Shown here: positions 16,057 through 50,406 of the stretch, one piece after another
Layout: each line of letters begins with the position of its first letter
Numbering within the stretch: the first letter of the stretch is position 1
Assembly: GCA_903900335.1 (NCBI GenBank)
Contig: CAIUMP010000060.1
Coordinates: 62,001 to 126,000, forward strand
Direction of reading: 5' to 3'
Length of the DNA stretch: 64,000 bases
From: an uncultured Ignavibacteriota bacterium
Lineage (GTDB): Bacteria > Bacteroidota > Ignavibacteria > Palsa-1295
Made by a program: the position numbers and the translations under genes
Notes under the pieces: model-generated
What the model was told of the DNA's origin: nothing
The model's database searches: none
Seen by the model: the letters and a program-made list of their open reading frames with translations, nothing else

Positions 16057-17799
16057 ATGGCTGACATCTTCATCTCCTATTCCTCCAAAGACCGTGCTCG
16101 GGCGGAGCAGCTCATCGAGCTACTCGCCTCGGCAGGGCTGTCCGTATGGATCGACAAATCCGGTATCGACGTCGCGACAAGTTGGTCGAGTGAGATCGTG
16201 GATGCGATCAACGGATGCAAAGCGTTCGTTGTGTTGCTATCGCCGAATTCGATGGAGTCGGTCAATGTGATCAAAGAGGTTTCACTGGCATCGGAGAAGC
16301 GGAAGAAGATCGTACCGCTGGACCTCGAACCTGTCGCGCTTACCCGCGATTTCGAGTATCAGTTGGCTGGACTCCAGCGCGCACCGATGACCAATATCGA
16401 CTCGGTCATCCGTGTGTTGGCTAAGCTCGGACTCGAAGCAACACAGCCACCTTCCATCAAGCTCGTCAAGGAAACCGACGGACGAAAGAGCTTGATGATC
16501 TTGCCATTCGAAGATTTGTCACCTACCGGCGATAATGCGTGGTTCGCCGATGGAATTGCGAATGAACTCATCGCTGCGCTTTCCCGGCTAAAGCAATTGC
16601 GCGTGGCCGACCAACAAGCGACAAAGGATTACAAACGCTATCAGGGGAATTTGCCAAACTATGCGAAGGAAATGGCAATCCGCTATTTCATTCAGGGAGA
16701 TGTCCGCAAATTCGGCGACCAAATCAAGATAACTGCAACCCTCCTCGACATTGAAACCGGCGACCACCTCTGGCAGGATTCGATGAAAGGCGTGATGAAC
16801 GACATCTTCGATATTCAGGAGACGGTAGCGGAGAAAGTTGTCGAAGGGCTGAAAGTGCATCTTGCATCCGAGGAACGGAAAAAGCTCGTCGAGCTGGGTA
16901 CGGAGAATGCCGAAGCGTATGAATTATATCTCAAAGGGCAAGAGTATTTTGATCGCCAAACCGGAGAAGGCTTTCAGCTTGCGGCAAAGCTCTGGTCCGA
17001 AGCTATCGCGCTGGATTCTGCCTTTGCGGAGGCATATTCGTGCAAAGCCGCTGCACTGGCTGCACTTTACCGCAGTTTCACTCGTGAACCTAGGTTGCTC
17101 GAAGAAGGGCTAACGCTCGTAACGGACGCACGGAGGATGAGGCCCCGGATGTGGTCGGCCTTTGCGCCGCTCACTATGATCCTCCTGCATCAGGGCAACC
17201 TCAAAGCAGCGGAAGCTGCTGCTCAAGAATTCGTCCTGAAGGCACCGGAGCATTATCTGAGCCATTTCTCGCTTGGATGCTTTTACCAGAATACCGGTCA
17301 AGCGGCCGAAGCGATAGCACCGTTTGAAGAGTCATTGAAGAGGAGACCGGGTTACTTTTCTGTTTTATTCAACCTCGTTCTAGCATGCGCCGATGCCGGG
17401 CGTGAGGAGAAGGAGAAGTACTGGTCAGAAATTGCCATCCCAATTTATGAAAAGCGCCTGAAGCTTTTTCCTGGCGAGGAAAAAACTCGGGTCGACCACG
17501 CCGCGCTGCTGTTTTGGGTCGGTCGGGATGGTGAAGCGCGAGCCGCCGCCCGCAAGCTGGAGGATCTTCGGGATGGCAAGGCTCTCTTCAACACCGCATG
17601 CCTGCAAGCCATGCTGAAAGACTATCCGGCTGGGATACTCATGTTTCGCAAAGCTATTGAAGCGGGGTTTCGAGCCACGCAGAACCTAAACTCCTTCCTG
17701 CATGATGCGGAAGGTGGTATCGGCACCCTCAATGGCACGCCGGAGTGGGAGGATGTGCGGGAGCTGGTGGAGGCACTGGAGACGACGAGTATTGGGTAA
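16057..17799 (+). CDS. TIR domain - TolB/FlgO-like - TPR protein
   Basis: MADIFISYSSKDRARAEQLIELL...VWIDKSGI (TIR); SLMILPFEDLSPTGDNAWFADGIANELIAAL; C-terminal TPR repeats. Confidence 0.85.
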   Translation: MADIFISYSSKDRARAEQLIELLASAGLSVWIDKSGIDVATSWSSEIVDAINGCKAFVVLLSPNSMESVNVIKEVSLASEKRKKIVPLDLEPVALTRDFEYQLAGLQRAPMTNIDSVIRVLAKLGLEATQPPSIKLVKETDGRKSLMILPFEDLSPTGDNAWFADGIANELIAALSRLKQLRVADQQATKDYKRYQGNLPNYAKEMAIRYFIQGDVRKFGDQIKITATLLDIETGDHLWQDSMKGVMNDIFDIQETVAEKVVEGLKVHLASEERKKLVELGTENAEAYELYLKGQEYFDRQTGEGFQLAAKLWSEAIALDSAFAEAYSCKAAALAALYRSFTREPRLLEEGLTLVTDARRMRPRMWSAFAPLTMILLHQGNLKAAEAAAQEFVLKAPEHYLSHFSLGCFYQNTGQAAEAIAPFEESLKRRPGYFSVLFNLVLACADAGREEKEKYWSEIAIPIYEKRLKLFPGEEKTRVDHAALLFWVGRDGEARAAARKLEDLRDGKALFNTACLQAMLKDYPAGILMFRKAIEAGFRATQNLNSFLHDAEGGIGTLNGTPEWEDVRELVEALETTSIG

Positions 17800-18970: not shown

Positions 18971-21088
18971 ATGATCACGATCATCGGCGGGGGCTTTGCC
19001 GGCCTATCCGCAGCTTATTTTCTCCACCGTGCGGGAAAGGATGTCACAGTCCTGGAATGGTCTCGTGGCCTTGGCGGACGCGCCGCAACGCGTAATGTCG
19101 GCTATCGAACAGTTGACTCCGGTGCCCAGCGTCTGGACCTTTCACCACTCAGTGTTAACCAACTTGAGACTGACGCCCGCGCGTTACTTCGCGAGGTGGC
19201 AGCCGAGCGTGGCGCACTTCCCTATATGCTTCCATTCCCCGGTCCGGTCTATCGCTTTGACGGCCGGTCAATCGCCACTGCTCAGCAAGTGGATGTGCCA
19301 AACTGGTCGTTCATGGATGGTGGTATGAAGGTGCTTGCCGAAGCCCTTGTCAAAGATATTCCTGTCAGGACACATACCCGGATCAGCGACATTGTCTTTG
19401 AGGAGAATTCCTACACGCTCCGAAATCAGCGTGGTGAAACGATGCAATCCGAGGGTATTGTCATTGCTCTTCCGGCACCCTATGCACTAGCACTTTTGCT
19501 ACCACATGCGGCAACCAACAAGAAAGTAAAGAAGGTCTGTGACCTTCTGAACGAAGTGAACTATGAGCCGATGATCGGAGCGATCTTCGGGACTGAGAAG
19601 ATCAACTTCAAAGAGCAGTTCTCCGCTCTGTTCACGGACGATGTGACAGCGCCGGTCTTCTGGCTATCCCAGGAGAGTGCCCGCCGAAATTTGGGTGTGC
19701 GACGAAATGAGATGGCTTTCGTGCTTCAGCTGGGTGCGGATATTAGTCGTGAGTACGTCCTCAAGACGGACAAGGAAACATTCGCAGCTATCGAGCGCGT
19801 GTTTGAGGATGTGCTTGATGTGGCATTGCCCGATGTGATCTACGGCGAGATCCAGCGCTGGCCGGCGGCGTTCCTCTCGTCTTCCCCGCTCACGGTTGAC
19901 TCGATCAAGCCATCCGATTTTAAGGTGCCGTTGTACCTGGCGGGTGATTTCGTTGCAGGACAGAGTTCGATCGCATCTGCATTTTGGAGTGGCAAGCAGA
20001 TCGCCGACAAGCTTGTCGGGATGGATACATTCAAGTTCATCGCAGAGCCAGCTCGCGAGCAGGCTCAATTGAGTGCGGAAGAGTGGAAAGCAGCCGTTCC
20101 GCCAGAACGCACCGTTCGGAAGGCACGTCAGAAGCCACCACGCAAGCTTGGCACAAAGAAGAAATTCGACGCAGCTACAGGCAAACGTGTGCCACAGACG
20201 AAGGAGCCAAAGCAGCAGCCTCGCAGAAATGCGCGTCCTGCGGGCGGCCCTCCAGGAAGGGGTGGTGATCGCCGTCAACCAGCATTTGGTGGACCACGCG
20301 GCGGTGGCGGTCAGCGAGGAGGATTTGCACCTCGTCAAGGTGGCGGGCCACGTCAGGGTGGGCGCCCGGGTGGACCACCACGTCAGGGGCCGCCACGTCA
20401 GGGTGGTTTCCGTCCTGCTGGTGGAGCGCCACGAGACAACAGCTTCCAGCCACGTGGTGGAGCTCCTCGGCAGTTTACCCCACGTCCAGCAGGAGGACCG
20501 CCGCAACGCGAATGGGGCGGTGGACAGCAGGGCCGTCCTCAACGCACGCAAGGTGGGCCGCCACGTGAGGGCGGTTACCAGCGTCAGGGGGGCTATCAGC
20601 AGGGTGGCGGAGGTGGCTACCAGCAAGGTGGAGGAGGCTACCAGCGCGGAGGCGGCGGTGGTGGATACCAGCAAGGTGGCGGCAGAAATTATGAGGGTGG
20701 AGGCTACCAACAAGGCGGTGGCGGTTATCAACAAGGAGGCGGATACCAAGGCGGCGGAGGCTATCAGCGTGGTGGAGGTGCACCACAGCGTGGCTCTGGC
20801 GGTGGCGGTTATCAGCAGCGTCCACCGAGCGGCGGCGGATACCGTGGCAGGCCGCAAGGCGGCGGTCAACGACCACCAGGAGGCGGAGGGCAGCGCGGGC
20901 CAGCTCGCGATTACGATCAGAGACAGCCTACTTCATCTGGCTATAGCGGGCCGGGCGAAAGGAAACCTGTTCGCGGGTCAGTCGTCTACTCGACAAACGT
21001 GCGACCTGCCGGCGGATCCGGACCGGCTTCAAATTCCCCGCAACGTCCTCGCAGGCCGTTTGACGACGAGAGCGTCGGGAATCGATAG
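18971..21088 (+). CDS. FAD-dependent amine-oxidase/renalase-like protein with long RGG/GYQ-rich C-terminal tail
   Basis: N-terminal MITIIGGGFAGLSAAYFLHRAGKDVTVLEWSRGLGGRAATR (Rossmann FAD site), C-terminal FAD motif PLYLAGDFVAGQSSIASAFWSGKQIAD, then ~290 aa of low complexity. Confidence 0.88.
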   Translation: MITIIGGGFAGLSAAYFLHRAGKDVTVLEWSRGLGGRAATRNVGYRTVDSGAQRLDLSPLSVNQLETDARALLREVAAERGALPYMLPFPGPVYRFDGRSIATAQQVDVPNWSFMDGGMKVLAEALVKDIPVRTHTRISDIVFEENSYTLRNQRGETMQSEGIVIALPAPYALALLLPHAATNKKVKKVCDLLNEVNYEPMIGAIFGTEKINFKEQFSALFTDDVTAPVFWLSQESARRNLGVRRNEMAFVLQLGADISREYVLKTDKETFAAIERVFEDVLDVALPDVIYGEIQRWPAAFLSSSPLTVDSIKPSDFKVPLYLAGDFVAGQSSIASAFWSGKQIADKLVGMDTFKFIAEPAREQAQLSAEEWKAAVPPERTVRKARQKPPRKLGTKKKFDAATGKRVPQTKEPKQQPRRNARPAGGPPGRGGDRRQPAFGGPRGGGGQRGGFAPRQGGGPRQGGRPGGPPRQGPPRQGGFRPAGGAPRDNSFQPRGGAPRQFTPRPAGGPPQREWGGGQQGRPQRTQGGPPREGGYQRQGGYQQGGGGGYQQGGGGYQRGGGGGGYQQGGGRNYEGGGYQQGGGGYQQGGGYQGGGGYQRGGGAPQRGSGGGGYQQRPPSGGGYRGRPQGGGQRPPGGGGQRGPARDYDQRQPTSSGYSGPGERKPVRGSVVYSTNVRPAGGSGPASNSPQRPRRPFDDESVGNR

Positions 21089-49488: not shown

Positions 49489-50379
49489 TTACTCTGTTGC
49501 TGCCGGTGCTGCCTCACGTGTACGAAGCTTAGGAGTGGCACTGCCACCACCGCTTCCACCACGCGACGGACCACCACGATCTCCGCCTCTATCGCCGCCA
49601 CGACCACCACGGTCGCCGCCACGATCTCCGTCGTCACGTCCACGACCACCGCGTCTGCGGCGTTCGCCGCCCGCTGCCGAAACGATCGGACGCTTATCCT
49701 TCTGCTCTACTCCGTTAACTGCAGTTTCTGCTGCCAACTGAAGCGGAGTCTGACCGATGATGTCACCGTGACAGATCCAAACCTTGATGCCGATCGCACC
49801 ATAGACGGTCTGCGAAGTAGACTTTGCAAAATCAATATCGGCGCGGAGGGTATGCAGTGGAATACGTCCCTCTTTGTACTGCTCGGTTCTCGCGATTTCT
49901 GCTCCGCCGAGACGGCCCGAGCATTTGACGCGGATACCTTCTGCACCGGCGCGCATCGCGGCCTGAATCGCACCCTTCATCGCACGGCGGAAGGAAATAC
50001 GCCCCTCCAACTGCTGTGCGATCTGATCGCCGACGAGCTGAGCATCCGTCTCCGGGCGCTTCACTTCGTTAATAAGGATCTTGACTTCCTTACCCGAGGT
50101 AATATTCTTCAGCTCTTCTTCGAGCTGAGCGATCTCCTTACCGCTCTTGCCGATCACAACGCCAGGTCGTGATGTGTGGATCGTAAGTACGATCCGCTTG
50201 GTCGTGCGGTCCAGCGTTAATCTGGAAAGACCTGCGCGCTTCAGGCGGTTCTTTACGTAGGCACGAATAAGATTATCTTCTTCGAGCTTCTGCGCGAAAT
50301 TCTTGTCGTCGTACCACCTGGCATCCCAGGGTTTGGTAACTGCGAGCCTGAATCCGATAGGATGAGTTTTCTGTCCCAA
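49489..50379 (-). CDS. rpsC: 30S ribosomal protein uS3 with RGG-type C-terminal extension
   Basis: MGQKTHPIGFRLAVTKPWDARWYDDKNFAQKLEED; C-terminal GGERRRRGGRGRDDGDRGGDRGGRGGDRGGDRGGPSRGG. Confidence 0.97.
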   Translation of the reverse strand: MGQKTHPIGFRLAVTKPWDARWYDDKNFAQKLEEDNLIRAYVKNRLKRAGLSRLTLDRTTKRIVLTIHTSRPGVVIGKSGKEIAQLEEELKNITSGKEVKILINEVKRPETDAQLVGDQIAQQLEGRISFRRAMKGAIQAAMRAGAEGIRVKCSGRLGGAEIARTEQYKEGRIPLHTLRADIDFAKSTSQTVYGAIGIKVWICHGDIIGQTPLQLAAETAVNGVEQKDKRPIVSAAGGERRRRGGRGRDDGDRGGDRGGRGGDRGGDRGGPSRGGSGGGSATPKLRTREAAPAATE

Positions 50380-50406
50380 GCGCTTACGTTAATTCGTGAT
50401 GTATGC

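What the first reader, a model, noticed from the sequence alone, without database searches (positions are those of the whole stretch)
18971..21088. Flavin amine-oxidase-like enzyme fused to a ~290-residue RGG/GYQ prion-like tail
Seen: residues 1 to ~370 have both FAD-binding motifs of a renalase/amine-oxidase-like fold. A basic linker follows (TVRKARQKPPRKLGTKKKFDAATGKRVPQTKEPKQQPRR), then a low-complexity tail with RGG/RPGG boxes and about ten GYQ units (GGYQQGGGGGYQQGGGGYQRGGGGGGYQQ...). Established: RGG boxes and G/Y/Q-rich prion-like regions in eukaryotic RNA-binding proteins bind RNA and drive condensation; bacterial examples are usually RNA-binding proteins, not oxidoreductases. Inference: the tail may tether a flavoenzyme to RNA or ribosomes, or form condensates.
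Basis: partly seen in the sequence, partly recalled or inferred. Interest (0 to 1): 0.75.

Follow-up and report, generated by a model that had tools for sequence, protein, structure and literature searches.

The report
Renalase-like flavoenzyme with conserved RGG tail
A bacterial enzyme related to renalase carries a long, floppy, arginine-glycine-rich tail of the kind found on RNA-handling proteins; the tail is kept in every relative found, which suggests that a redox enzyme is physically tied to the cell's RNA or ribosome machinery.

Summary
ORF 18971-21088 (+, 705 aa) is a renalase-like FAD protein (residues 1 to ~368; best solved match is Pseudomonas renalase 4zcc, E=1.1e-16). A basic linker and a ~286-residue disordered RGG/GYQ tail follow. 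The tail is not an artefact. All 11 orthologs found (one family of class Kapabacteria, three genera) carry a 239-336 aa extension with the same composition (G 19-37%, R 11-15%, Q 8-19%, Y 4-8%) and net charge (+34 to +44), although its sequence barely aligns. Glycine codons are mixed and the longest exact DNA repeat is 17 bp, which argues against collapse or recent expansion. Tailless homologs (354-370 aa) occur only in distant families. In 64% of the genome, the other cytosolic Gly/Arg-rich tails are on RNA proteins: PNPase, a RhlE-like DEAD-box helicase, two RRM proteins and ribosomal protein uS3. The uS3 extension has the same family-restricted distribution. Best reading: a renalase-type redox enzyme tethered by its tail to RNA or ribonucleoprotein, as a client or scaffold of an RNA-processing assembly. 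RNA binding, condensation and the enzyme's substrate are inferred, not shown. The parts are known; the architecture appears new.

The parts
18971..21088 (+). whole gene, 705 aa plus stop: renalase-like flavoenzyme with C-terminal RGG/GYQ tail
   Evidence: full-length orthologs in 10 further genomes
18971..20074 (+). catalytic head, residues 1-368, renalase/amine-oxidase fold
   Evidence: PF01593 E=3.6e-21; 4zcc renalase E=1.1e-16 over residues 2-349; Foldseek ranks 1-7 all Pseudomonas renalase
18977..19081 (+). N-terminal FAD (Rossmann) motif GGGFAG to SRGLGGR, residues 3-37
   Evidence: sequence; invariant in orthologs; shared with 4zcc and tailless homologs
19925..20020 (+). C-terminal FAD motif VPLYLAGDFVAGQSS...SGKQIADKLVG, residues 319-350
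   Evidence: sequence; conserved in orthologs and aligned with 4zcc YVCGDW
20111..20227 (+). basic linker, residues 381-419
   Evidence: (K/R)K(F/Y)DA.KGKRV core conserved in the genus
20228..20569 (+). tail segment 1: RGG/RPGG/PRQGG-rich
   Evidence: sequence; composition conserved in 11 orthologs
20573..20815 (+). tail segment 2: ten GYQ units within poly-Gly
   Evidence: 10 GYQ counted; tandem units at DNA level only 70-78% matching
20981..21007 (+). short motif VVYSTNVRP, residues 671-679, near-invariant in the genus
   Evidence: a possible counterpart VxVYQTxxxRNP lies mid-tail in two other genera
21062..21085 (+). C-terminal DDxxxGNR, residues 698-705
   Evidence: GN(R/Q) conserved in all 11 orthologs
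49492..49716 (-). RGG/RGGD tail of ribosomal protein uS3 in the same window: another bearer of a similar tail, found in the same family
   Evidence: PF00189 E=5.1e-37; extension in 12/12 family genomes with a hit, absent or short in 16 of 17 others

Best explanation
A cytosolic renalase-type FAD oxidoreductase (head) is fused to an intrinsically disordered, strongly positive RGG/GYQ region (tail). The tail holds the enzyme on RNA or ribonucleoprotein (ribosomes, or an RNA-decay assembly with PNPase and RhlE) through Arg-phosphate, Arg-aromatic and Tyr-Gln contacts, and could concentrate it in condensates. Shown here: the fusion, its conservation, the renalase relationship, the lack of predicted structure in the tail, and the company of RNA proteins with similar tails. 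Inferred: RNA/RNP binding, and the head's chemistry (oxidation of a reduced, probably nicotinamide-type substrate with O2 giving H2O2). The likeliest role is a metabolic or redox enzyme riding on the RNA machinery, as aconitase does in the Caulobacter RNA degradosome.
For: All 11 orthologs have the tail, with conserved composition, length and charge but little sequence conservation: composition distance among tails 0.16, to heads 0.53. In 2.55 of 4.01 Mb of the genome, the other credible cytosolic bearers of Gly/Arg-rich tails are PNPase, a DEAD-box helicase, two RRM proteins and uS3. The helicase tail is closest in composition (distance 0.27). The uS3 extension is confined to the same family. 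Renalase is the best match by sequence and fold. AlphaFold gives no structure in the tail, mean pLDDT about 28-40 per block over most of it. The Caulobacter RNA degradosome contains aconitase as a client (PMC10412687).
Against: No RNA-binding or condensation data. No conserved gene neighbourhood links it to RNA genes. The tail is richer in Q, Y and P and longer than those of PNPase, uS3 and the RRM proteins, so the shared chemistry is a resemblance, not homology. The survey left 36% of the genome unread. Substrate-site residues of renalase were not tested.
Confidence: 0.55

Rival explanations
1. The tail delivers the flavoenzyme to an RNA or ribosomal-protein substrate that it oxidises directly (an amine-oxidase-type reaction on a modified nucleotide or methylated side chain), so it is an RNA- or RNP-modifying enzyme.
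For: Amine-oxidase superfamily head, RNA-type tail; from general knowledge, FAD oxidases acting on tRNA (MnmC) and on methyl-lysine (LSD1) exist.
Against: The head is closest to renalase, which acts on small dinucleotides. MnmC_Cterm scored 26.5 bits against a cut-off of 174 and matched only the Rossmann start.
Confidence: 0.15
2. The tail binds another polyanion or surface (nucleoid DNA, polyphosphate, inner membrane), and RNA is incidental.
For: Net charge of +34 to +44 is not RNA-specific.
Against: GYQ/RGG stickers go beyond charge, and the other cytosolic proteins found with such tails are RNA proteins.
Confidence: 0.15
3. The tail is a weakly constrained low-complexity extension (solubility, hydration, or drift by repeat slippage) without a specific partner.
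For: Poor alignability, many indels.
Against: Kept in all 11 orthologs across head identities down to ~51%, with stable length, charge and composition, mixed codons, and conserved VVYSTNVRP (genus) and GN(R/Q) (family) motifs.
Confidence: 0.12
4. Assembly or gene-calling artefact (collapsed or expanded repeat, frameshift fusion).
For: A repetitive stretch in what is presumably a draft, metagenome-derived assembly.
Against: Independent assemblies of 10 other species give the same architecture; longest exact repeat 17 bp.
Confidence: 0.01

Closest known systems
Bacterial renalase (Pseudomonas; PDB 4zcc, 4zcd, 5krq, 3kkj)
   Same: Colinear FAD-binding head over residues 2-349; top hit by sequence and fold
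   Different: No tail; only about 20% identity; substrate-site residues not compared with the enzyme's structure
Tailless renalase-like proteins of other families in the phylum (L145 370 aa, L146 354 aa)
   Same: Same domain (E=3e-27 and 2e-22)
   Different: End at the last helix of the head; no linker or tail
Eukaryotic RGG / G-Y-Q-rich RNA-binding proteins (FUS-type; plant glycine-rich RBPs)
   Same: RGG boxes and Tyr/Gln/Gly repeats in a disordered C-terminal region
   Different: Attached to a flavoenzyme, not to an RRM or other RNA-binding fold; no homology claimed
Bacterial RNA degradosome bodies (RNase E C-terminal disordered region with PNPase and aconitase in Caulobacter; PMC10412687)
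   Same: A positively charged disordered region, PNPase, and a metabolic enzyme in one assembly
   Different: There the scaffold is RNase E; here RNase E/G has no long C-terminal Arg-rich region and the long tail is on the flavoenzyme itself; no assembly has been shown

Membership tests
Flavin amine oxidase superfamily (PF01593) | Profile match above curated cut-off with both FAD-contacting segments | tested here: met
   76.4 bits against a cut-off of 19.8, two stretches; both motifs conserved in orthologs
Renalase | Best and full-length similarity to solved renalases rather than other amine oxidases | tested here: met
   4zcc E=1.1e-16 over 2-349; the next non-renalase structure is 8.5e-06 over residues 2-55 only; Foldseek top 7 are all renalase, on a low-confidence model (pLDDT 59)
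Renalase | Oxidation of 2-/6-dihydro-NAD(P) isomers (activity reported for renalase, cited in PMC5655536) | not testable with these tools
   needs enzyme assay
Hydroxysqualene dehydroxylase HpnE / protoporphyrinogen oxidase (best NCBIfam names) | Curated score cut-off | tested here: not met
   56 against 283 bits and 52 against 517 bits
RGG/RG-type RNA-binding disordered region | Clustered RGG/RG in a Gly-rich disordered region | tested here: met
   6 RGG, 22 R-x(0-2)-GG, 30% Gly; no structure predicted
RGG/RG-type RNA-binding disordered region | RNA binding | not testable with these tools
   needs binding assay
RNA degradosome / bacterial RNP-body component | Physical association with RNase E, PNPase or a helicase | not testable with these tools
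   only shared tail chemistry seen; gene neighbourhood not conserved

The most novel reading that the evidence does not exclude
This bacterial family runs an RGG-tail-based RNP assembly (PNPase, RhlE-like helicase, RRM proteins, uS3), with a flavoenzyme that has the longest such tail found as a redox-sensing scaffold or client: flavin turnover (peroxide, NAD(P)H state) would tune RNA decay or translation.
Probability: 0.15. Interest if true: 0.85.

Novelty: new variant of a known kind. Interest (0 to 1): 0.6.

Why it matters
Disordered RGG tails are mostly discussed on RNA-binding proteins. A lineage-wide fusion of such a tail to a renalase-like oxidoreductase is sequence evidence that a redox enzyme is selected to sit in the RNA milieu. 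It gives a testable model of metabolism-RNA coupling in bacteria, and a natural set of 11 tails that diverge in sequence but not in composition for studying how disordered-region chemistry is conserved.

Tried and rejected
Operon or partner by neighbourhood: flanking genes (secA, a TIR/TPR protein, an mscS-like gene, dapB-dapA) are not conserved in orthologous loci; in two genus members the gene lies near the ribosomal-protein cluster, in four near a conserved membrane-protein-like gene. Conserved tail motif as a shared tag: no other VVYSTNVR- or DDxxxGNR-bearing RGG protein was found in the 64% of the genome surveyed. Tail as DNA repeat or assembly artefact: rejected. Alternative reading frames in the tail: frame +1 is open in only 4 of 11 orthologs, the antisense frames in no consistent set. 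Structure of the full protein: the alignment was too shallow (7 sequences) and the head model weak, pLDDT 59, pTM 0.64. Literature: ten searches of the open library showed no report of an RGG-tailed flavoenzyme in the listed results; this is not proof of absence.

Full report
What is there. The ORF at 18971-21088 (+) encodes 705 aa. Residues 1 to ~368 match Pfam Amino_oxidase (E=3.6e-21) and NAD_binding_8 (5.5e-13). No NCBIfam name shown reaches its cut-off. The best solved relative is Pseudomonas renalase 4zcc/3kkj, colinear over residues 2-349 (E=1.1e-16). The other flavoenzymes listed match only about the first 40-60 residues. A model of the head, weak because only seven sequences could be aligned (pLDDT 59, pTM 0.64), still returns Pseudomonas renalase at ranks 1-7 in Foldseek, and human renalase at rank 11. 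Residues 381-419 form a basic linker. Residues 420-705 hold 6 RGG, 22 R-x(0-2)-GG and exactly 10 GYQ. No regular structure is predicted for the tail.

Is the tail real? Eleven genomes hold a full-length ortholog: all seven members of the genus examined (the window's genome and six others, head identity 78-84%) and four others of the family (51-58%). All eleven have open frames of 618-721 codons. The two family genomes without a hit are 67% complete, so absence there means little. Named records are Candidatus Kapaibacterium, Ignavibacteriae and Bacteroidetes MAGs, which I read as class Kapabacteria. Across orthologs the tail is 239-336 aa, G 19-37%, R 11-15%, Q 8-19%, P 8-15%, Y 4-8%, net charge +34 to +44. 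Composition distance among tails is 0.16, against 0.53 to heads. Residue alignment is poor, except for the basic linker, a VVYSTNVRP motif (genus; with a possible counterpart VxVYQTxxxRNP mid-tail in the two other genera), and a C-terminal acidic patch with GN(R/Q). At the DNA level, all four Gly codons are mixed (1.88 bits), GC3 is lower in the tail than in the head, only the annotated frame is open in every ortholog, and the longest exact repeat is 17 bp. So selection most likely acts on amino-acid composition, and assembly collapse is unlikely.

Origin. Among 299 genomes of the class, only the 11 family members have a match at E<=1e-15. In 349 genomes of the phylum, two distant families have homologs (E=3e-27 and 2e-22) of 370 and 354 codons, with no tail. 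The tail is therefore most simply a gain in this family's lineage, although the direction was not tested on a tree.

Company. I read 2.55 Mb of the 4.01 Mb genome for ORFs with Gly-rich, basic low-complexity stretches. Besides this gene, the credible cytosolic bearers are PNPase, a DEAD-box helicase that looks like RhlE, two RRM proteins and ribosomal protein uS3 (identities by Pfam). One further bearer looks like an exported lipoprotein, and a few short ORFs look spurious. The uS3 extension is itself confined to the family: stop-to-stop frames of 268-313 codons in 12 family genomes against 210-235 in 16 of 17 others. Two further genus members show the RGG composition in uS3 directly. PNPase frame lengths do not separate the family cleanly. 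RNase E/G has a short RG-rich insertion and an acidic C-terminus but no long Arg-rich C-terminal region, so the usual scaffold of bacterial RNP bodies seems to be missing here.

Neighbourhood. Flanking genes are not conserved across the family, and only partly within the genus. No partner can be named from context.

Mechanism, with status. Shown: the fusion, its conservation, the renalase relationship, a tail without predicted structure, and shared tail chemistry with RNA proteins. Follows from established families: FAD binding and an oxidase-type half reaction; renalase is reported to oxidise 2- and 6-dihydroNAD isomers (cited in PMC5655536). Inferred: RNA/RNP tethering, possible condensation, and a role as client or scaffold of the RNA-processing machinery. 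A metabolic enzyme in such an assembly has precedent: aconitase in the Caulobacter RNA degradosome, whose scaffold RNase E phase-separates through Arg-rich blocks (PMC10412687).

Verdict. Observation confirmed; interpretation partly supported. A new architecture built from known parts; interest 0.6.

Noticed in passing
window 49492-50388 (-): Ribosomal protein uS3 with a ~75-residue RGG/RGGD C-terminal tail; the extension is restricted to this family among the class genomes searched.
   Followed up: partly
L185:14436-16706 (+): PNPase with a GGGDRGGDRGGYGDRRGGGGG tail of ~50 residues after its S1 domain.
   Followed up: partly
[quoted passage not shown]
   Followed up: no
L131:9017-10615 (-): RhlE-like DEAD-box helicase with a ~130-residue R/G/P/Q tail, the closest in composition to the flavoenzyme tail.
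   Followed up: no
L166:13196-15292 (-): RNase E/G with an acidic plus RG-rich insertion near the S1 region; stop-to-stop frames 644-733 codons in the family against 536-582 in three of four outside genomes.
   Followed up: no
window 16057-17799 (+): Protein with an N-terminal TIR-like domain (MADIFISYSSKDRARAEQLIELL) and TPR-like repeats, not conserved next to the gene in relatives.
   Followed up: no
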